Below are positions 4,430 through 59,640 of a stretch of 64,000 nucleotides of DNA, one piece after another. How positions within the stretch are numbered: the stretch's first letter is position 1; the number at the start of each line of letters is the position of its first letter. Made by a program: the position numbers and the translations under genes. The stretch is from NCBI RefSeq assembly GCF_001523745.2, contig NZ_CP013386.1:2728001-2792000 (forward strand), in the 5' to 3' direction. The notes below the pieces were generated by a model. It had not been told where the DNA came from, did no database searches, and was given only the letters and a program-made list of their open reading frames with translations. This stretch comes from Burkholderia mayonis (GTDB taxonomy: Bacteria; Pseudomonadota; Gammaproteobacteria; Burkholderiales; Burkholderiaceae).

Positions 4430-5050
4430 ATGAACATGATCGGGAAGCTTTCCACATTCGCCAACACGCTGATCGCGGCCGGCGCGCTCACGCTTATCGG
4501 ACATCCGGCATCGGCTCAAGAAGACATGCATGCGCATCACCACATGATGATGTCGAGCATGAAGACATCGACGGTGGCCTATACCGTACCGGCCGTGACG
4601 CTCGTGCGCGACGACGGCAAGACCGTCGCGCTGAAAGACGAGCTCGACGACGGACGTCCGGTCGTGCTGACGTTCATCTACACCACCTGCACATCGATCT
4701 GCCCGGTGATCAGTCAGACCCTGTCGCAACTCCAGCACGAGCTCGGCGCGGACCGCGACAAAGTCCACATCGTGTCGATTTCGATCGATCCGGAAAACGA
4801 CACGCCTGCGCGCCTGCGCGAGTACGCAGCGAAGTTCGGTGCGGGACCGGAGTGGCAGCACTACACGGGAACGGCGGCGGCGAGCATCGCCGCGCAGAAA
4901 GCCTTCAACGTGTACCGGCAGGACAAGATGGATCACAACCCGGTCTTCCTGCTGCGCGCGGCGCCGGGCAAGTCATGGCTTCGAATCGACGGATTCGCGA
5001 CCACCGACGATCTGCTGCATCTATACCATTCCGTCCTGGCTTTCGACTGA
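4430..5050 (+). CDS. SCO1/SenC family copper chaperone
   Basis: 206 residues starting at ATG 4430, preceded by AGGGAG. An N-terminal hydrophobic segment (about 8–29) ends in Ala-Ser-Ala, giving export or a membrane anchor. The thioredoxin-like SCO signature is intact: Cys87-Thr-Ser-Ile-Cys91-Pro and distal His169 (in DHNPVFLL), the three Cu ligands of the family. Residues 33–44 are Met/His-rich (MHAHHHMMMSSM), a likely additional Cu-binding tail. SCO proteins deliver Cu to cytochrome oxidase CuA or to other periplasmic copper enzymes. No oxidase gene is nearby, so its client may be encoded left of the window edge or elsewhere. Co-oriented with the cytochrome-fusion gene. Confidence 0.9.
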   Translation: MNMIGKLSTFANTLIAAGALTLIGHPASAQEDMHAHHHMMMSSMKTSTVAYTVPAVTLVRDDGKTVALKDELDDGRPVVLTFIYTTCTSICPVISQTLSQLQHELGADRDKVHIVSISIDPENDTPARLREYAAKFGAGPEWQHYTGTAAASIAAQKAFNVYRQDKMDHNPVFLLRAAPGKSWLRIDGFATTDDLLHLYHSVLAFD

Positions 5051-5062
5051 TCGCGCCGATCT

Positions 5063-5096
5063 GCGTCTTCAGACGCGCCGGCCCGTCTGAAGACGC
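5063..5096. terminator. Perfect 13-bp inverted repeat after the SCO1 gene
   Basis: Arms GCGTCTTCAGACG and its exact complement are separated by 8 bases, 12 bp after the SCO1 stop codon. The stem is strong but is not followed by a T-run on the + strand, so it is at best an unconventional terminator or a transcript 3'-end stabiliser. Confidence 0.45.
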
Positions 5097-5482
5097 CGGC
5101 GGTACGGGCGCGGCGGCCTGCATGCGGCAAGCTCCGCCGGGCTGAATGAGTCGATCCTCGCGCTCCCGATTGACACGCCACGGTGCGTGGCGAACGGCAG
5201 CGAGGCGGCGGCGGTCGACGATGGCCGTTGCCCGACTGATGCGGACGATGCAGCGCCGATGACTGATTCGGCCGAGGACCCGTCGCGCGACACAAAACGG
5301 GAAAATTCGCTACGTCGTGCAAACAGCCGCTCGGTCGACGCTGCTCGAATCGATCGGGCCGTTTGCCGGGCACTCATGCGGCGCAAGAGACGCAGCACCC
5401 TGCAGTTCGATTCGCTGCCGACGCGACTCGGCTGGCGCCGCCGCGATTTGCGCTCGCATTGTAAAAAAACGCCGCGCCCCGC

Positions 5483-6021
5483 TCAGCCCTTGCGCGTCGA
5501 CTTGGGCGCTCGCTCGGTGCAGACCGGCTCGAAATCCGCGTGTTCGTCGAGCGTCGAGCCGCCGTCCGCCAACGGGCGCTCGGCCTCTCCGTGCGATCCG
5601 TATTGCTGTCGAGTTCGGCGGCGCTCGTTTCGAACGCACGAACGTCGCGGTCGGTATCGACGTCGAACGGACGCTCGTTCGCGCCCGCGACGCCGCCGCT
5701 GCCCGGCGAATTCGCCCGGACCGAGCGAACGGTTGCTGCGGCCTTTCCGCCGAATTGCCGCCGGGCGGCTCGTATGGTTCGCATGGCTCGCCGGCGGGAA
5801 TCAGCGTGCGGCTCCAGCCGACGCCCTCTCCCGATCGAGCGCCGGCGCGCGGCACGTCCGATGCGCGCCGCGCGCCCGGTCGGCGCGGTCCGTCCTCACC
5901 CGCCGGCGGATGCGGCGCTGCCGCCCTGCTTCGAGCACGAGGACATCGCTACCGCCAATCCCGCCGCCGTCACGCCGACGGCGACCGCTCGCCATATGCT
6001 TCGAGAAAATTCGGGTCGTAT
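5483..6021 (-). pseudogene. Possible decayed lipoprotein gene with several frame changes
   Basis: On the minus strand an AGGAGG (6026–6031) lies 4 bases before a codon ATA (6021–6019) in the frame where ATG would be expected. From there the frame gives a short basic start, a hydrophobic stretch and a Ser-Ser-Cys-Ser lipobox-like site, then stops at 5896. Protein-like composition then seems to move between frames: GEPCEPYEPPGGNSAERP around 5750–5790, DVDTDRDVRAFETSAAELDS around 5610–5670, and STLDEHADFEPVCTERAP ending in TGA at 5483, just before a T7 run. This would be a lipoprotein gene broken by indels and a lost start codon. Random open frames in GC-rich DNA could look similar, so the call is tentative. 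The remainder of 5097–6100 shows nothing else I can support. Confidence 0.3.
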
Positions 6022-6100
6022 GGTGCCTCCTGCAGTAAACGAGTCCGTCGCGCAGCAAGCGGCGCGCCGCGGATTCACCCAACGCCGCCAGTCGAGCTGA

Positions 6101-6196
6101 GCCGAGCCGAGCCGAGCCGAGCCGAGCCGGGCCGGGCCGGGCCGGGCCGGGCCGGGCCGGTCGATCGATCGATCGATCGAAAAAAAGTCAATCGAT
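6101..6196. repeat. Compound microsatellite (GCCGA)5 (GCCGG)7 (TCGA)5 A6
   Basis: Five GCCGA units (6101–6125) pass directly into seven GCCGG units (6126–6160), then five TCGA tetranucleotides (6161–6180) and an A-run, with a short second TCGA-like stretch to about 6200. It lies about 130 bp upstream of the small ORF at 6331. Short-unit tandem arrays like this change length by polymerase slippage. Confidence 0.95.
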
Positions 6197-6693: not shown

Positions 6694-6802
6694 CGCCGTT
6701 CGCCGTTCGCCGTTCGCCGTTCGCCGTTCGCCGTTCGCCGTTCGCCGTTCGCCGTTCGCCGTTCGCCGTTCGCCGTTCGCCGTTCGCCGTTCGCCGTTCG
6801 CC
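6694..6802. repeat. Tandem array of the 7-bp unit CGCCGTT, about 15.5 copies
   Basis: The heptamer CGCCGTT repeats without interruption or visible mismatch from 6694 to about 6802. As 7 is not a multiple of 3, all frames read a 7-residue repeat, which creates spurious ORFs on both strands. The 6625–7065 interval contains no gene I can support; this array is its only feature. A variable-number locus is likely. Confidence 0.97.
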
Positions 6803-7065: not shown

Positions 7066-7395
7066 ATGGCTCGCGATCCCGACCTCGAAGCGCTCGTCGA
7101 CGACGAACTGAAGTTCGAGCGCAACCTCACCGCGAAGGCGATGTTCGGCGGCTGGGCATGGCTGCTCGACGGCAACCTGCTCTGCTGCGCCCGCGACGAC
7201 GGAATGCTCGTCAGGCTCGGCAAGGACAACGACGGCTGGGCGTTGCAGCGGTCAGGCATCGTACGGATGATCTCGCGCGGCAGGCCGATGCAAGGCTGGG
7301 TGCGCGTCGCGCCGGAGGCGTACGGCAACGATGCGCTCCGTCGCCGGCTGCTCGACGCGGCGCTCGAATGCGTCCGTTCGCTGCCGCCGAAGTAG
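7066..7395 (+). CDS. TfoX/Sxy N-terminal domain protein
   Basis: 109 residues from ATG 7066. The protein matches the stand-alone TfoX N-terminal domain: an ARDPDLEALVDDEL start, then LTAKAMFGGWAWLLDGNLLCC, VRLGKDN, and a C-terminal RGRPMQGWVRV followed by a helix. Full-length TfoX/Sxy promotes competence gene expression with CRP; single-domain versions are common and their role is not settled. The longer in-frame extension upstream runs into the heptamer repeat region and is low complexity, so I prefer 7066. It is the last native-looking gene before the IS fragment at 7466. Confidence 0.8.
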   Translation: MARDPDLEALVDDELKFERNLTAKAMFGGWAWLLDGNLLCCARDDGMLVRLGKDNDGWALQRSGIVRMISRGRPMQGWVRVAPEAYGNDALRRRLLDAALECVRSLPPK

Positions 7396-7465: not shown

Positions 7466-7868
7466 AGTCCCGTGCCACGCAAGATCGTTACCGATCAGTT
7501 GCGCAGCTATCCGGCGGCAAGCGCGGAAATTCCTGAACCGGCGAGCGTGAAGCATGTGTTCGTCAAAGCGGCGGCCCGGCTATACAACCGGGCTGAGAAC
7601 AGCCGCCAGCCGACGCGCGAACGCGACTGGCGCATGCGGGATTTTCGCAACCCGAAACGCACACCGGCATTCCTCGGCTGCTTCGGTCCGATCCGACAGC
7701 ACTTTGCCCTCGAGCGGCATCTGCCGCGCGCTTCACACTATCGCAAACCGCTCGCAGCAAGGTTTGTGGCCCGGCGCGAATTCACCGAACTCGCCCGAAG
7801 TCCGTCGACAGGTTTCTGAACGATCGCCACACTTGCCGCAGTTCCGCCTGATTCTCTCCACGTTGACA
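7466..7868 (+). mobile_element. IS6-family element remnant, 3' part only (copy 1)
   Basis: This segment repeats 10625–11027 with one mismatch over about 400 bp, in the same orientation. It encodes the C-terminal ~113 residues of an IS6-type DDE transposase, including the IVTDQLRSY Asp and the NRAENSRQPTRER Glu regions, and reaches the right terminal end (GTTGACA). The 5' half is missing; the left break falls 70 bp after the TfoX gene. It forms the left boundary of the low-GC island. Confidence 0.9.
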
Positions 7869-8582
7869 GCGCCCTTTGCAGAACCTGACCGTCGCCCGCC
7901 TCATTTACCGGCATGCGCCGTCGAATGGAACGGGCGTCCGCGTGGCATAACCTTGGTAATTCGCAGTCCATCGATCGTTCAGAACGCGGGAAAGAGAAAA
8001 CAAACAGATTTGCATACGACCAAGTGCACCATTTTAATGATGGAATATTTCTAATTCATATACTGGCATCACCAATCCCGTGCAGTTGTTTCTGCGTCAA
8101 ATAATTACATTATTGCTTGTCAAGCACTCCGGATATCAATCTAACACCGTACAAAATCGCGAGATCGGGTGCATTTTTCCTTCACGAAATCACGAACGAC
8201 GCAGTAGCCGCGCTGGGTAAAAAAGTGGGCTCCTCTCTCCAGAATGTCCCGTCTCTCGCCCGACAACTTATTACAGGAAGATGGAAATTAAGTGACCATT
8301 CCATGGCTGTCGCGCGTCCATGCGCTGACCGATGCGCGGCGTGGCTTCGCATAGAGTTGAATCGATGCTTTATTTGGTGCCACGACAGTAGCGAAAAAAG
8401 TTGTTGCAGACGAGGGACTCCATCCGTAGAGTATGCAGGCCCGTCTATCTGTAAGGCACAGGCCTGCCCATCTGCAAGGCAAGTCGAGAACACGGCGGAT
8501 CGACTTCTAATTCGCTCGCACAAAATTGGAAATATCACCGAGAGAGAGAGCCGTCCAAGTGATCGATATAGAGAGCTGCATT
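7869..8582. other. AT-rich non-coding stretch at the left of the island
   Basis: About 710 bp of base composition clearly lower in G+C than the flanks (for example 8101–8160). Open frames here (8117–8593 on +, 8182–8538 on -) have no ribosome site, no recognisable domain and poor composition, so I leave them out. It presumably contains the promoter of the oxygenase/exporter pair, but I cannot fix a -35/-10 pair with confidence. Confidence 0.7.
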
Positions 8583-9683
8583 ATGCCAGATAATCGTTTT
8601 GCTCAGCTTCCAGTCAAATCCTATTTTGACGAAGACGTTTTAAAACTCGAGCGCGATCTGATCTTCGAAGTCTTTCCGCAGTACCTCGGACATGAGCAGT
8701 GGATCCCGCACGTCGGGGATTATTTAGTGCTCTCTCATGAAAACAACGGACGGATCATGGTTCATGCCGAAAATGGCATCAATTTACTGTCGAACGTTTG
8801 TCGACATCGTCAGGCCACCATACTGCAGGGGCGTGGGACCGCTTCTTACATAACGTGCCCATTGCATCAATGGACGTACGCCCCCAACGGAACCCTGCTC
8901 GGAGCGCCGCATTTCCCCGAGAATCCCTGCCTGAACCTGGAAAATTTCGCGACACAAAAATGGAACGGGATCATATACGAGGCGGCTCCGCATAACGTTG
9001 CGAGCGCGATGGCGTCTTTGCCATCAGAGATCGCCGAGATCATTGATTTCACTCGATATGTACCGGACAAATCGGAAAGCTATCGCGTGAATTACAACTG
9101 GAAAACGTTCCTCGAGTTTTACCTGGAAGACTACCATGTCGCGCCATTTCATCCTGGCCTCGGCAATTTCGTGACTTGCGACAATATCCAGTGGAAATTT
9201 GGCGAGTGGTATAGCGTGCAGATGGTCGGCATCAAAGACACACTGCGGAGGCCGGGAAACAGCGAGATCTATCGAAAGTGGCATCGCGCAGTACTGGATT
9301 ACTATGGATCGGATCTCCCGAACTATGGAGCAATATGGCTCTACATTTACCCGAATGTCATGATCGAGTGGTATCCTCTCGTGCTTGTGATATCAACGGT
9401 CTTCCCCAACGGCGCCGGACACAGCGTCAATAATGTCGAATTCTTCCATCCGGAAGAAATTATTCTGTTTGACACAGATTCGATCACGAGCGCCCGGATT
9501 GCCGCCGAAGCATATATTGAGACTGCAATTGAGGACAACCTGATCGGCGAGAGGATGCACGAAGGCCGGCGCGCACTTTGGGAACGTGGCGGCTGTGAGG
9601 TGGGGCCGTACCAAAGCCCTCTCGAAGATGGCATGCGTCATTTCCATGCGCTCTATCGATCCCAGATCGGCCAATATTTGTGA
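8583..9683 (+). CDS. Rieske non-haem iron oxygenase, alpha subunit
   Basis: 366 residues from ATG 8583; a start at 8526 would add 19 non-family residues. The N-terminal Rieske [2Fe-2S] site is complete: Cys73-x-His75 and Cys92-Pro-Leu-His95. The catalytic domain has the 2-His-1-carboxylate iron site: His185 and His190 in EDYHVAPFH, with Asp318 (in IEDN) as likely third ligand. The residue three before His185, where the bridging Asp of naphthalene dioxygenase sits, is Glu182; Glu there is known from quaternary-amine oxygenases such as CntA. Such enzymes hydroxylate or demethylate small substrates using electrons from a reductase, and none is encoded nearby. The gene is much less GC-rich than the chromosome and lies 10 bp before an SMR exporter. 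Confidence 0.88.
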   Translation: MPDNRFAQLPVKSYFDEDVLKLERDLIFEVFPQYLGHEQWIPHVGDYLVLSHENNGRIMVHAENGINLLSNVCRHRQATILQGRGTASYITCPLHQWTYAPNGTLLGAPHFPENPCLNLENFATQKWNGIIYEAAPHNVASAMASLPSEIAEIIDFTRYVPDKSESYRVNYNWKTFLEFYLEDYHVAPFHPGLGNFVTCDNIQWKFGEWYSVQMVGIKDTLRRPGNSEIYRKWHRAVLDYYGSDLPNYGAIWLYIYPNVMIEWYPLVLVISTVFPNGAGHSVNNVEFFHPEEIILFDTDSITSARIAAEAYIETAIEDNLIGERMHEGRRALWERGGCEVGPYQSPLEDGMRHFHALYRSQIGQYL

Positions 9684-9693
9684 GTCGATAATC

Positions 9694-10023
9694 ATGAGTC
9701 CGTGGATATTACTTTCACTGTCAATTCTTTCCGAAGTAGTCGGAACAGTATTTCTGAAGTGCTCGGATGGCTTAAGTCGCCCCTCGTATACAGTCGCGAT
9801 GGGGGTGTGCTACGTTGGCGCAATATGGCTGATGGGCATTGTTACAAAACAGCTTGAAATTGGAATTACTTATGCGATCTGGGCCGGTGCCGGCACAGCA
9901 ATCACTGCTTTGGTCGGCGTGATCGTATTCGATGAAGGTACGTCGCTTGCGAAGCTTTCGGGGATGGCCTTTATTGTGGCCGGCGTGGTGTTGTTAAACC
10001 TGAGCCAGCGAGCCGCGGCGTAA
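9694..10023 (+). CDS. Small multidrug resistance (SMR/EmrE-like) transporter
   Basis: 109 residues with four predicted transmembrane helices, the usual SMR size. The membrane-embedded glutamate required for proton-coupled cation exchange is Glu14 (LSLSILSEVVGTVFLK), and the ITYAIWAGAGTA motif of helix 3 is intact. SMR proteins work as antiparallel dimers exporting quaternary ammonium compounds, guanidinium or polyamines. ATG 9694 is 10 bp after the oxygenase stop, so the two are almost certainly co-transcribed. Low G+C like its neighbour. Whether it is of the multidrug or guanidinium subtype cannot be settled by eye. Confidence 0.92.
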   Translation: MSPWILLSLSILSEVVGTVFLKCSDGLSRPSYTVAMGVCYVGAIWLMGIVTKQLEIGITYAIWAGAGTAITALVGVIVFDEGTSLAKLSGMAFIVAGVVLLNLSQRAAA

Positions 10024-10208
10024 TGGTTGCCGGGACGGCTTCGCCCAGGCACGGCCGCAAGCCCTCTCCCCCTCCCGGACCGCATGCTCTCTCAGTCGGT
10101 TCGCGCGGTAGCCGCGCTGCCGCCAAATTGCGAACCCGGCGCGAAAGCCATCTGTCTCGGACTCAAAGAGGTTCATGTCTCGCCAAGACGTTGCAGGCAT
10201 TACGTGCC

Positions 10209-11027
10209 GGGGTATTGTCAGGTTGTAGGGTCGAGCGCGTAGGATGTGGTGATGAAGAAATCGAAATCGCTTTTATCACGGTCATCGTTTCCCGACCAGC
10301 GCTGTCAGTTGCGCGGTGCGCGGGCATTTTCGCTTCCAGTCGAGCTTGCGTGACATCGAGGGATTGCTCTTCGAGCGCGGCGTGATCGTGACGTACGAGA
10401 CGATCCGATGCTGGTGCGATAAATTCGGCGCGGACTTCGCACACCTGGTCAGAGCGGCGCGCCGCAAGCCGGGCAGCACATGGCACCTCGGCGAGATGTT
10501 CGTGACGCAGCGCGGCGAGCCATACGTGCTGTGGCGGGCGGTCGACGAGCGCGGTGCCGAGCTGGACATCTTGCGGCGCGACAAGGTTGCCGCCAAACGC
10601 TTCTTCAGGCGCGTTCTGCGCTCAAGTCCCGCGCCACGCAAGATCGTTACCGATCAGTTGCGCAGCTATCCGGCGGCAAGCGCGGAAATTCCTGAACCGG
10701 CGAGCGTGAAGCATGTGTTCGTCAAAGCGGCGGCCCGGCTATACAACCGGGCTGAGAACAGCCGCCAGCCGACGCGCGAACGCGACTGGCGCATGCGGGA
10801 TTTTCGCAACCCGAAACGCACACCGGCATTCCTCGGCTGCTTCGGTCCGATCCGACAGCACTTTGCCCTCGAGCGGCATCTGCCGCGCGCTTCACACTAT
10901 CGCAAACCGCTCGCAGCAAGGTTTGTGGCCCGGCGCGAATTCACCGAACTCGCCCGAAGTCCGTCGACAGGTTTCTGAACGATCGCCACACTTGCCGCAG
11001 TTCCGCCTGATTCTCTCCACGTTGACA
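10209..11027 (+). pseudogene. IS6-family insertion sequence with inactivated transposase (copy 2)
   Basis: About 820 bp, the size of IS6 elements. Ends carry related terminal repeats (GGTATTGTCA left; complement of GTTGACAACG right). The transposase starts at ATG 10252 but reads out of frame after an apparent extra T in CTTTTATCAC (10270–10279). The remaining frame then matches IS6 transposases to the stop at 10978. The first catalytic Asp, expected in WHLDEMF, is Gly (codon 10490–10492), and a few residues are missing in ILRRDKVAAKRF. The Asp in IVTDQLRSY and Glu in NRAENS remain. So the copy is doubly inactive. 10024–10208, just upstream, is GC-rich and shows no gene I recognise. Confidence 0.88.
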
Positions 11028-11480
11028 ACGCAGCGCAAAGGGCATCCGCGCGGGCTCGCGCCGCCCGACCTCGACGCGTACTGCGCGCTCCGGCATGTAA
11101 TCGTGTCGGGCGACGGCGGCGGCTTTCACGGCTTCATGGACGACCGCCTGCGCGCGCTGGGGCGCACGCGGTTCATCGCGGTGTCCGTGCAGCAGTACCA
11201 TCTCGCGCCACCCGTGCTCGAAGCAACCGGCTGCGTGTGTGCGCTGCCCGAGCGCTTCTTCATGTGCTTCGCCGACCGGCTCGATCTGCTGCCGCTGCCC
11301 GTCGCAGTCGGCGGCTTCACGCTCGCGGCCGCATGTCATCCGCGGCTTCAGGCCGGTCCCGCGCATCGCTGGCTGCGCGACGCGCTGTTCGCCGTCGTCC
11401 GGCGGCGCGCGGACGAGCCGGGACCGCAGCCGGAGTCCCAGCCGGGGGACGACGCGCGGGCGGCGGGGCCTCGAGCGTAG
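11028..11480 (+). pseudogene. LysR-type regulator, C-terminal fragment truncated by the IS
   Basis: Directly after the IS right end the frame reads about 150 residues typical of the effector-binding half of LysR-type regulators: a KGHPRGLAPPDLDAYC entry, HVIVSGDGGGFHGFMDDRL, then PPVLEATGCVCALPERFF and a C-terminal HRWLRDALFAVV helix. The winged-helix DNA-binding half is absent and is not found at the left edge of the island (around 7400–7466), so it was lost. No start codon or ribosome site precedes the fragment. It marks the insertion point of the IS/island. Confidence 0.8.
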
Positions 11481-11583: not shown

Positions 11584-11625
11584 TTGTTGATTCCAACCGT
11601 CAGCCATTCAAGCCATCACACGAAC

Positions 11626-12519
11626 ATGACCGAAACATCCCGACCGAAGCCATCCGACGAACCGTTCACCGCGCTGCGCCCGCGGCTCTTCTCGATCGCG
11701 TACCGGATGCTCGGCACGCGCGCCGACGTCGAGGACGTGCTGCAGGACGCTTGGCTGCGCTGGCACCTGGCCGATCACGACGCGCTCGATTCGGCCGAGG
11801 CGTGGCTCGTCACCGTTGTCACCCGGCTGTCGATCGACAGGCTGCGCGCCGCGAAGGCGCAGCGCGACGCGTACGTAGGCTGGTGGCTGCCCGAGCCGCT
11901 CGTCGACGCCGACGAGCGCACGCCCGAGACCGCCGCCGAGTTTGCCGACGACCTGTCGGTTGCGCTGCTTTGGGTGCTCGAGCGGCTGTCGCCCGAGGAG
12001 CGCGCGGCGTTCCTGCTGCGTCAGGCGTTCGAACGCGACTACGCAGAGATCGCGCAGTTGCTCGACAAGAGCGAGGCCGCGTGCCGGCAACTCGTCCATC
12101 GCGCGTCGACGCGCGTCCAGCAGGCGCACCGGCGCTTCGACGTGTCGCGCGACCGGCACCGGCAGCTCGTCGAGCGCTTCGCGCGGGCCGCCGCGAGCGG
12201 CGAGCGCGGCGCGATCCAGGCGCTCCTCGCCGACGACGTCGAGCTCGTCGGCGACGGCGGCGGCAAGGTGCCGTCGTTTTTCAAGGTGCTGCGCGGCGCG
12301 CTCCGGATCGCGAATCTGTATTGGGCCGTCGGCAGGCGCAACGTCGGGCGGGTCGCGTATCGGCTCGCGCAGATCAACGGCGAGCCGGGCCTGCTGCGCT
12401 TCATCGACGGGCAGATCGAATCCGCGCAGGCGTTCGTCACCGACGGCGCGCGGATCATCGCGATCTACGCGGTGCGCAATCCGGACAAGCTCGCGCACAT
12501 TCCGACCGGCGACAAGTGA
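11626..12519 (+). CDS. ECF41-group RNA polymerase sigma factor with C-terminal SnoaL-like domain
   Basis: 297 residues from ATG 11626. Order: sigma region 2 (residues ~15–80, FSIAYRMLGTRADVEDVLQDAWLRW), linker with the ECF41 hallmark WLPEPL (87–92), sigma region 4 (~110–170), then a SnoaL/NTF2-like domain (~178–290) with DGGGK (210–214) and the C-terminal NPDKL motif (285–289). In this group the C-terminal domain modulates the activity of the sigma factor in place of a separate anti-sigma factor. The group is typically encoded beside a carboxymuconolactone decarboxylase, oxidoreductase or epimerase, and the former is the next gene here. Autoregulation is expected from the promoter at 11557. 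The inducing signal is unknown. Confidence 0.93.
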   Translation: MTETSRPKPSDEPFTALRPRLFSIAYRMLGTRADVEDVLQDAWLRWHLADHDALDSAEAWLVTVVTRLSIDRLRAAKAQRDAYVGWWLPEPLVDADERTPETAAEFADDLSVALLWVLERLSPEERAAFLLRQAFERDYAEIAQLLDKSEAACRQLVHRASTRVQQAHRRFDVSRDRHRQLVERFARAAASGERGAIQALLADDVELVGDGGGKVPSFFKVLRGALRIANLYWAVGRRNVGRVAYRLAQINGEPGLLRFIDGQIESAQAFVTDGARIIAIYAVRNPDKLAHIPTGDK

Positions 12520-12756
12520 ACGCGGCGATGGCGCGCGGCGCAATCGCGCTGGCGCGATGTCTCGCGTGACGCCCGCCCCGCCAAGACCGGACAGGGCTGC
12601 CCCGGCTCAGCCCAGCTCTCCTCAGCTCGATTCAGCTCGGTTCGTCTGGTACTGGATATGGTATGGCACAGCCCGAAGCCCATCCCATCGTCCGAACGGC
12701 CATCGATGCCGACCGCGTCGCACCACACTGCCCCGCGACGCCTCCTTGCAAAAATC

Positions 12757-12783
12757 TGTCACAAACGCGCGACGTGCCGCGTC
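12757..12783 (+). promoter_or_regulatory. ECF41-type promoter of the AhpD-like gene
   Basis: TGTCACA at 12757–12763, 16 bases, CGTC at 12780–12783, 51 bp before the start of the AhpD-like gene. Spacing and both boxes equal those upstream of the sigma gene, and the flanking GCCGCGTCTTGT is also shared. The rest of 12520–12834 holds no gene. Confidence 0.85.
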
Positions 12784-12834
12784 TTGTAGGCGAGGGCCGC
12801 ATCGAGCGGCCCCGCCTTCACGAGGAAACCGATC

Positions 12835-13287
12835 ATGGCACACGCCCCCCGCCTCCCGTACCCCAAGCTCGCATCGAAGTCGTTCAACGCGCTACTCCAT
12901 CTGTCCGAAACCGTGTGGAGCGGCGCGCTCGACAAGCGGCTCGTCGATCTCGTGTTCCTGCGCGTGTCGCAGATCAACGGCTGCGCGTACTGCATCGACA
13001 TGCACTGGCGCGATCTCGTGCGGCTCGGCGTCGACCAGCGGCACCTGAACGCCGTCGCCGGCTGGCGCGAAGCGCCATTCTTCGACGCGCGCGAGCGCGC
13101 CGCGCTGCAATGGGCGGAAAGCGTCGCGCGGATTCCGCACACGGACCCGAGCGACGCGGCGTTCGCGGAACTGCAGGCGCACTTCTCCGACGCCGAAATC
13201 GCGGAACTCGGCTTCGCGATCGCGACCATCAATGCGTGGAACCTGCTCAACGTCAGCTTCAGGAATCCGATTCCGGAAACGGTGTAA
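12835..13287 (+). CDS. Carboxymuconolactone decarboxylase / AhpD-like protein
   Basis: 150 residues from ATG 12835. All-helical CMD/AhpD fold with redox motif Cys50-Ala-Tyr-Cys53 and His57 (NGCAYCIDMHWRDL), matching the CxxC-x3-H signature of alkylhydroperoxidase AhpD-like proteins. It is therefore more likely a thiol peroxidase-type or redox protein than a true decarboxylase. It sits downstream of the ECF41 sigma factor with its own ECF41 promoter, the classic target gene of that sigma group. No oxidoreductase or epimerase partner is present. Confidence 0.92.
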   Translation: MAHAPRLPYPKLASKSFNALLHLSETVWSGALDKRLVDLVFLRVSQINGCAYCIDMHWRDLVRLGVDQRHLNAVAGWREAPFFDARERAALQWAESVARIPHTDPSDAAFAELQAHFSDAEIAELGFAIATINAWNLLNVSFRNPIPETV

Positions 13288-58686: not shown

Positions 58687-59640
58687 ATGACTACCGCACT
58701 CGACCAGCTCAAGCAGTACACGACCGTCGTCGCCGACACGGGCGACTTCCAGCAACTCGCGCAATACAAGCCGCAGGACGCGACGACGAACCCGTCGCTG
58801 ATCCTGAAGGCCGTCCAGAAGGACGCCTATCGGCCGATCCTCGAGAAAACGGTCCGCGATCACGCGGGCGAATCCGTCGGCTTCGTCATCGACCGTCTGC
58901 TGATCGCGTTCGGCACCGAGATCCTGAAGCTGATCCCGGGCCGCGTATCGACCGAAGTCGACGCGCGCCTGTCGTTCGACACGCAGCGCTCGATCGACAA
59001 GGGCCGCGAGATCATCAAGCTTTACGAAGCAGCGGGCATCGGCCGCGAGCGCGTGCTGATCAAGCTCGCGTCGACGTGGGAAGGCATTCGCGCGGCCGAA
59101 GTGCTGCAACGCGAAGGCATCCGCTGCAACATGACGCTGCTGTTCTCGCTCGTGCAGGCGGCCGCGTGCGCGGAAGCGGGCGCACAGTTGATCTCGCCGT
59201 TCGTCGGCCGGATCTACGACTGGTACAAGAAGCAGGCGGGCGCCGAATGGGACGAGGCGAAGAACGGCGGCGCGAACGATCCGGGCGTCGAGTCGGTGCG
59301 CGGCATCTACACGTACTACAAGCACTTCGGCTACGAAACCGAAGTGATGGGCGCGAGCTTCCGCACGACGAGCCAGATCACCGAGCTCGCCGGCTGCGAC
59401 CTGCTGACGATCAGTCCCGACCTGCTGCAAAAGCTGCAGGACAGCACCGAGACGGTCGCGCGCAAGCTGTCGCCGGACACGGCGAACGACGCGCGGCTCG
59501 AGCGCGTCGCAATCGACGAGTCGTCGTTCCGCTTCCAGTTGAACGACGACGCGATGGCGACCGAAAAGCTCGCCGAAGGCATTCGCCTGTTCTCGGCCGA
59601 CGCGGTGAAGCTCGAGAAGATGATCGAGGCGCTGCGCTGA
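58687..59640 (+). CDS. tal: Transaldolase
   Basis: 317 residues from ATG 58687. Class I aldolase of the TalB type: [15 protein letters not shown] near the N-terminus, Schiff-base Lys126 in [31 protein letters not shown] and [12 protein letters not shown]. Length is that of TalB. Transfers dihydroxyacetone units in the non-oxidative pentose phosphate pathway. Monocistronic. Confidence 0.97.

What the first reader, a model, noticed from the sequence alone, without database searches (positions are those of the whole stretch)
7466..11027. Low-GC island with Rieske oxygenase and SMR exporter bounded by direct IS6-type repeats
Seen: about 402 bp at 7466–7868 equals 10625–11027 with one mismatch, same orientation. 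The DNA between is much poorer in G+C than its flanks and holds a two-gene operon. Inference: horizontally acquired, IS6-mediated insertion, excisable by recombination between the repeats. The left IS copy is truncated and the right one mutated, so it is now fixed unless RecA-dependent deletion occurs.
Basis: partly seen in the sequence, partly recalled or inferred. Interest (0 to 1): 0.75.

Follow-up and report, generated by a model that had tools for sequence, protein, structure and literature searches.

The report
Fossil IS6 island with oxygenase-exporter pair
A small piece of foreign DNA carrying an oxygenase gene and an exporter gene, bounded by two worn-out copies of a jumping element, has replaced a different exporter and half of its regulator in a Burkholderia chromosome; the mechanism looks ordinary, but the oxygenase is an orphan relative of an enzyme of unknown role found in every Burkholderia genome examined.

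Summary
7466-7868 and 10625-11027 are 403-bp direct repeats with one mismatch, parts of an IS6-family insertion sequence, around the only low-GC stretch of the window. The interpretation needs correcting. This is a replacement, not a plain insertion: relatives carry an MFS exporter gene and the 5' half of its divergent LysR regulator there (2.07 kb in G017), missing here; the LysR 3' half starts at the junction. Both IS copies are defective and no other IS6 element was found in the genome, so only RecA-type recombination could delete the cassette. A Tn5-type transposase remnant abuts the right copy. The cargo is intact: a Rieske oxygenase with its iron ligands and an EmrE-like SMR exporter. 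The Rieske gene is an orphan, at most 57% identical to a betaproteobacterial family present in 65 of 65 Burkholderia genomes; in GTDB loci that family lies beside ispA (68 of 71), and a DMT/EamA transporter follows in 22 of 74. Best reading: a pseudo-compound transposon relic whose cargo oxidises and exports a cationic compound. Structure well supported; cargo function a hypothesis.

The parts
7066..7395 (+). TfoX N-terminal-domain gene, intact left flank
   Evidence: PF04993 1.5e-9; 84% nt identity to G017 up to 7396
7466..7873 (+). left IS6-family copy, 5'-truncated, right end present
   Evidence: repeat; matches residues 128-244 of a related IS6 transposase; end located by comparison with relatives L224/L225
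7886..8582 (.). low-GC leader with no recognised gene or RNA family
   Evidence: 49.7% G+C for 7889-8582; no Rfam match up to E 5; no plasmid match up to E 0.01; ORF 8117-8593 hits no Pfam up to E 0.05
8583..9683 (+). Rieske oxygenase alpha-subunit gene, 366 aa, intact
   Evidence: PF00848 3.1e-34, PF00355 8.1e-10; C73 H75 C92 H95, D183, H185 H190 D318 present (roles assigned by motif, recalled); AlphaFold pLDDT 90.3
9694..10023 (+). SMR-family exporter gene, 109 aa, intact, EmrE-like
   Evidence: PF00893 8.7e-21; EmrE chains 1.2e-16; E14, Y40, Y60, W63 present
10130..10210 (+). remnant of a Tn5-type transposase gene
   Evidence: 87-90% nt identity to Burkholderia loci L185/L186/L018; the 104-aa ORF in L185 is PF02281 3.6e-25
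10211..11028 (+). right IS6-family copy, nearly full length; left end present, transposase broken, right tip not intact
   Evidence: PF13610
11029..11480 (+). 3' half of a LysR regulator gene (ancestral, truncated)
   Evidence: PF03466 3.7e-7 for 11031-11480; homology to G035 and G017 starts at 11029; longer LysR ORFs in relatives, the G017 one with HTH_1 and LysR_substrate
11626..12519 (+). sigma-70 (ECF-like) gene, intact right flank
   Evidence: PF04542 4.1e-14, PF08281 2.3e-13

Best explanation
7466-11028 is the relic of an IS6-family pseudo-compound transposon. Shown: two directly repeated, nearly identical but defective IS6 copies bound a low-GC cassette (leader, Rieske oxygenase gene, SMR exporter gene, Tn5-type transposase remnant); the unit sits where relatives have an MFS exporter gene and the 5' half of its LysR regulator. 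Inferred: an IS6 element landed in the LysR gene, an adjacent deletion removed the MFS gene and the LysR 5' half, and a circular unit (cassette plus one IS6) joined the resident IS6 remnant by transposase or by homologous recombination, giving the cassette between two direct copies. Both copies have since decayed, so the island is fixed except for RecA-type deletion of one repeat unit (3159 bp), which would leave one IS6 remnant and not the ancestral locus. Inferred, weaker: the intact pair is a modify-and-export module; the Rieske enzyme oxidises (for instance N-dealkylates) a cationic, perhaps quaternary ammonium, compound and the proton-coupled SMR antiporter expels substrate or product.
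Against: No second strain of the same species could be examined, so the order of events is not tested, and the structure alone does not tell circular-unit joining from two independent IS insertions with later loss of their outer ends. The inner 8 bp at the two IS ends (7874-7881, 10203-10210) do not match, so no target duplication supports either route. By my count the two IS ends agree at only 8 of 14 positions. Aromatic-acid oxygenases (terephthalate dioxygenase 32.9, salicylate 5-hydroxylase 32.3) tie with CntA in fold. The window's 8 changes at conserved columns equal the most divergent of the 38 relatives (leave-one-out median 1, maximum 8). No reductase or ferredoxin gene is in the cassette. 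Promoter-like sites are not above chance (2 found, both on the minus strand, 1.6 expected) and no RNA family matched. The SMR subtype rests on sub-threshold scores. No such pair was found elsewhere (0 SMR hits in the 74 loci with enough downstream DNA). The MFS search scored only 26 of 54 first-look candidates in the own genome.
Confidence: 0.6

Rival explanations
1. Ordinary composite structure: two IS6 copies inserted independently on either side of a cassette that had already arrived by another route, the outer IS ends were lost by deletions, and the copies were kept alike by recent origin or gene conversion. No circular unit was involved.
For: Same anatomy; a left copy without its 5' part and a right copy without its tip are expected from end erosion. 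No target duplication at the inner ends (sequence).
Against: Needs two insertions in the same orientation plus two end losses, where one joining event on a resident remnant suffices; only these two IS6 copies were found in the genome.
Confidence: 0.25
2. The cargo genes are passengers without a present role, intact only because the arrival is recent.
For: Very low codon adaptation (0.34 and 0.21); no promoter above chance; no partner reductase in the cassette; 1 mismatch in 403 suggests recency.
Against: Neighbouring pieces (IS transposase, Tn5-type remnant, LysR) are broken while both cargo frames and the catalytic residues are whole.
Confidence: 0.3
3. The pair is ancestral and was lost from relatives.
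For: The Rieske family occurs in 65 of 65 genus genomes, and an SMR relative survives in G035 and as a relic in G000 and G017 at another locus.
Against: The host has its own homologue in the ispA-dxs context (C2:2161023-2162084), and the window gene falls outside the supported Burkholderiaceae group (96/95); six relatives hold a different gene pair at this site.
Confidence: 0.03

Closest known systems
IS6/IS26-family pseudo-compound transposons and translocatable units (PMC7986276 and PMC4894685: passages seen)
   Same: Directly oriented IS6 copies bounding cargo; IS about 820 bp; ends with GG and a G at position 7 as in the published consensus (PMC6807381 passages)
   Different: Both IS copies defective, outer ends missing, outer target duplication not testable; chromosomal locus partly lost; cargo is an oxygenase plus an SMR exporter
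Betaproteobacterial Rieske oxygenase gene divergent from ispA-dxs
   Same: Same family, 49-57% identity, iron ligands shared; that locus often has a DMT/EamA transporter or a rhodanese-type sulfurtransferase after it
   Different: Window gene is a long branch (1.93 changes per site), foreign in composition, paired with an SMR and not in that context
Quaternary ammonium Rieske oxygenases CntA and stachydrine demethylase
   Different: 18-20% identity; aromatic-acid oxygenases score within 1 Z unit; substrate unknown
Mobile SMR exporters carried with catabolic genes, as for metformin breakdown (PMC10829512: abstract and passages)
   Same: SMR gene carried horizontally with enzymes acting on a nitrogenous compound
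   Different: There Gdx-type SMR with guanidine-type substrates; here Qac-like by score, next to a Rieske oxygenase

Membership tests
IS6/IS26-family insertion sequence | DDE transposase of the IS6/IS240 type | tested here: met
   PF13610 1.5e-21, above cut-off; transpos_IS6 121.2 bits against cut-off 125
IS6/IS26-family insertion sequence | length about 800 bp; terminal repeats starting GG with G at position 7 | tested here: met
   right copy 10211-11028, about 818 bp; the surviving left end (right copy) and right end (left copy) both start GG with G at position 7, located by comparison with L224 and L225; consensus from PMC6807381 (passages)
IS6/IS26-family insertion sequence | 8-bp target duplication | tested here: inconclusive
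   outer ends are missing; inner flanks 7874-7881 and 10203-10210 differ (sequence)
IS6 pseudo-compound transposon | cargo between directly repeated IS copies | tested here: met
IS6 pseudo-compound transposon | able to move (active transposase, intact ends) | tested here: not met
   frame broken near the start, catalytic triad incomplete by eye, right tip not intact, left copy truncated; no other IS6 found in the genome. Hence a relic, not a transposon
IS26-type translocatable unit | a circular molecule with one IS plus cargo, joined beside a resident IS | not testable with these tools
   needs same-species strains or PCR; anatomy compatible
Rieske non-haem iron oxygenase, alpha subunit | Rieske C-x-H ... 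C-x2-H and a 2-His-1-carboxylate site in a Ring_hydroxyl_A domain | tested here: met
CntA / quaternary ammonium Rieske oxygenases | activity on a quaternary ammonium substrate | not testable with these tools
   fold match only, tied with others
SMR transporter | about 100-residue subunit with central Glu, Tyr switch and binding Trp | tested here: met
   PF00893, E14/Y60/W63; roles from PMC9574504 passages, residue numbering recalled
SMR, Qac subtype | best subtype model above its cut-off | tested here: inconclusive
   best is Qac-pB8 at 78.3 bits against cut-off 200; SugE 57.0 against 126

The most novel reading that the evidence does not exclude
The pair is a mobile offshoot of a betaproteobacterial 'Rieske oxygenase plus DMT-type exporter' module of unknown function, whose core form lies beside ispA-dxs; in the island a four-helix SMR, a fold distantly related to DMT, has taken the place of the EamA transporter. 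The island would then show what the core enzyme does: oxidise a cationic or amphipathic metabolite for export.
Probability: 0.2. Interest if true: 0.65.

Novelty: new member of a known kind. Interest (0 to 1): 0.38.

Why it matters
If right, it shows an IS6-type element replacing one exporter locus of a Burkholderia chromosome with another gene pair. The orphan Rieske gene also points to a widespread oxygenase, lying next to the isoprenoid genes ispA-dxs in most loci examined and often with a transporter, for which I found no described role; that association can be tested directly.

Tried and rejected
Clean insertion with an otherwise intact site in relatives: rejected, about 2 kb of ancestral DNA is missing. 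Assembly artefact: not favoured, the own genome is in 2 contigs with both copies placed; no reads were available. Riboswitch upstream of the genes: no Rfam match up to E 5. Plasmid or phage source: no near match for 7886-10130 in 72,556 plasmid records; distant mode with 7889-10219 gave 11 records at 65-78%, inside the Rieske gene; plasmid tblastn with the Rieske protein matched 735 records, all under 60% (20 listed); with the SMR 13 records, all under 60%; phage records 9, all under 60% and covering about half the protein; viral contigs 2 loci at 46% for the Rieske, none for the SMR. Recent duplicate of the host's own Rieske gene: rejected, the window gene falls outside the supported Burkholderiaceae group; its exact place is unresolved (holding the 30 core rows together is not rejected, p-AU 0.277; the 106-row tree is the quick version because the careful one had not finished; one search used 34 rows of my choice). 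Donor search: 65 genus genomes, best other 54%; 398 family genomes, best 57%; 399 order genomes, no other at E<=1e-136; 369 class genomes, best other 53%; one scan of GTDB contigs, 205 relatives, best 80 kept, at most 54%. The IS ends were first placed wrongly (a recalled end motif) and corrected with relatives. A codon script first read two genes in the wrong frame and was rerun. A Pfam scan of 11601-12519 found nothing because the frame was wrong; 11626-12516 was then scanned. Papers: searches found none; one search listed two with incidental terms (listing only); of the two, passages were seen and do not concern this gene; two searches listed papers not opened; two searches listed those whose passages are cited. 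So these searches found no paper on this pair. Viral-library fold search not run.

Full report
WHAT WAS CHECKED. The window lies in G000:C1:2728001-2792000 of a two-contig, 6.59 Mb genome. Its genus is Burkholderia: G015, listed as the same genus, has a 196,020-base contig with an IS6 match at 58788-59543, the length and place found in B. glumae LMG 2196 record NZ_CP009433.1. The species was not established.

THE REPEAT. 7466-7868 and 10625-11027 agree at 402 of 403 positions. They are parts of an IS6-family element. By comparison with two plasmid relatives (L224, L225) the element starts at about 10211 in the right copy and ends at about 7873 in the left copy. The left copy lacks its 5' part. 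The right copy is nearly full length, but its transposase frame is broken near the start, its catalytic triad is incomplete (by eye) and its right tip is not intact where it meets the LysR gene. Only these two copies were found in the genome, by nucleotide search and by PF13610. Relatives of the element are common on plasmids: 300 of 72,556 records, 172 of them covering at least 80% of the query, the best rows at 77-81% identity.

THE CASSETTE. Between the copies lie a 49.7% G+C leader without recognised gene or RNA, a Rieske oxygenase gene, an SMR exporter gene 10 bp further on, and an 81-bp remnant of a Tn5-type transposase gene that ends where the right IS copy begins. Across the window the 20 of 631 1-kb windows under 56% G+C all fall in 7501-10400. 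Codon adaptation of the two genes (0.34, 0.21) is far below that of 8 host genes (0.63-0.79, leave-one-out); I picked those 8 from two fetched loci.

THE SITE IN RELATIVES. G017 matches the window up to 7396 and again from 11029; between these G017 has 2065 bp with an MFS-type gene on the minus strand and the 5' part of a LysR gene. G035 has the same MFS-LysR pair but no matching TfoX gene. MFS homologues at E<=1e-120 occur in 7 of 65 genus genomes and not in G000 (26 of its 54 first-look candidates were scored); in 6 of the 7 they lie divergent from the LysR homologue (positions). So G000 has lost the MFS gene and the LysR 5' half and gained the cassette. G017 and G035 have no match to 10030-11040 at E<=0.001.

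HOW IT AROSE. One route that needs few steps: IS6 inserts in the LysR gene, an adjacent deletion removes the MFS side, and a circular unit of cassette plus one IS6 joins the resident remnant. Published IS26 work shows such joining by transposase and, about 100 times less often, by RecA when both transposases carry frameshifts (PMC4894685, abstract and passages). The repeat boundaries coincide with the two chromosomal junctions, as this predicts, but truncation of two independent copies gives the same picture, so this is not decisive. One mismatch in 403 (95% CI 0.006-1.4%) against 7-18% divergence in seven right-flank segments from G035 means the duplication is young or homogenised.

CONTEXT OF THE FAMILY. 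In the 80 GTDB loci, ispA lies divergent within 1.5 kb in 68 of the 71 with enough upstream DNA; of 74 with enough downstream DNA, 22 have a DMT/EamA transporter within 500 bp on the same strand, 52 a rhodanese-type sulfurtransferase within 1.5 kb, 18 both and 18 neither; none has an SMR hit. The neighbour queries came from two loci (their families), so divergent neighbours may be missed. Among the Burkholderia genomes this context was looked at only in G000 and G027 and in one B. stagnalis record.

THE SMR GENE. EmrE-like (64 bits against EmrE chains), best NCBIfam score a Qac-type model below cut-off. Its nearest relative found is a 73-75% identical SMR gene in G035 between genes that look like phaR and rimO (names recalled from the proteins); in G000 and G017 the same place holds only a remnant of about 48 codons. 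SMR and DMT folds are distantly related (PMC9574504 abstract and passages). Mobile SMR genes carried with catabolic genes are known from metformin degraders (PMC10829512 abstract and passages).

VERDICT. An ordinary kind of event, now fossil, with an unusual cargo. Mobile structure and replaced locus: well supported. Order of events: inferred. Cargo function: hypothesis.

Noticed in passing
G000:C2:2161023-2162084 (L183) and loci L103-L182: A Rieske oxygenase gene for which I found no described role, with homologues in 65 of 65 Burkholderia genomes, is divergent from ispA in 68 of 71 testable GTDB loci and often followed by an EamA transporter (22 of 74) or a rhodanese-type sulfurtransferase (52 of 74).
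   Followed up: partly
L213/L214 (IMG/VR contigs), Rieske at 5004-6059: Two viral contigs with the same genes carry a 46% identical Rieske oxygenase among genes for GTP cyclohydrolase I, a PTPS-like enzyme, a weak radical SAM match and an aspartyl/asparaginyl hydroxylase-like protein; this resembles a 7-deazaguanine pathway set (recalled).
   Followed up: partly
L200 (Caballeronia grimmiae plasmid p1), 5950-7143: A 45.5% identical Rieske gene sits directly after siderophore genes (IucA/IucC family, siderophore ferric iron reductase).
   Followed up: no
G000:C1 about 2024244-2024399 (L217) and G017 (L218): Remnant of an SMR gene between phaR-like and rimO-like genes (names recalled); in G035 the match lies in a 108-codon open frame.
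   Followed up: partly
window 6694-6802: 15.6 perfect copies of the 7-mer CGCCGTT upstream of the TfoX-domain gene; copy number may vary.
   Followed up: no
window 6093-6159: 13.4 copies of a CGAGC-type 5-mer, 95% matches.
   Followed up: no
window 11626-13287: Sigma-70 (ECF-like) gene followed by a carboxymuconolactone-decarboxylase-family gene, right next to the island.
   Followed up: no
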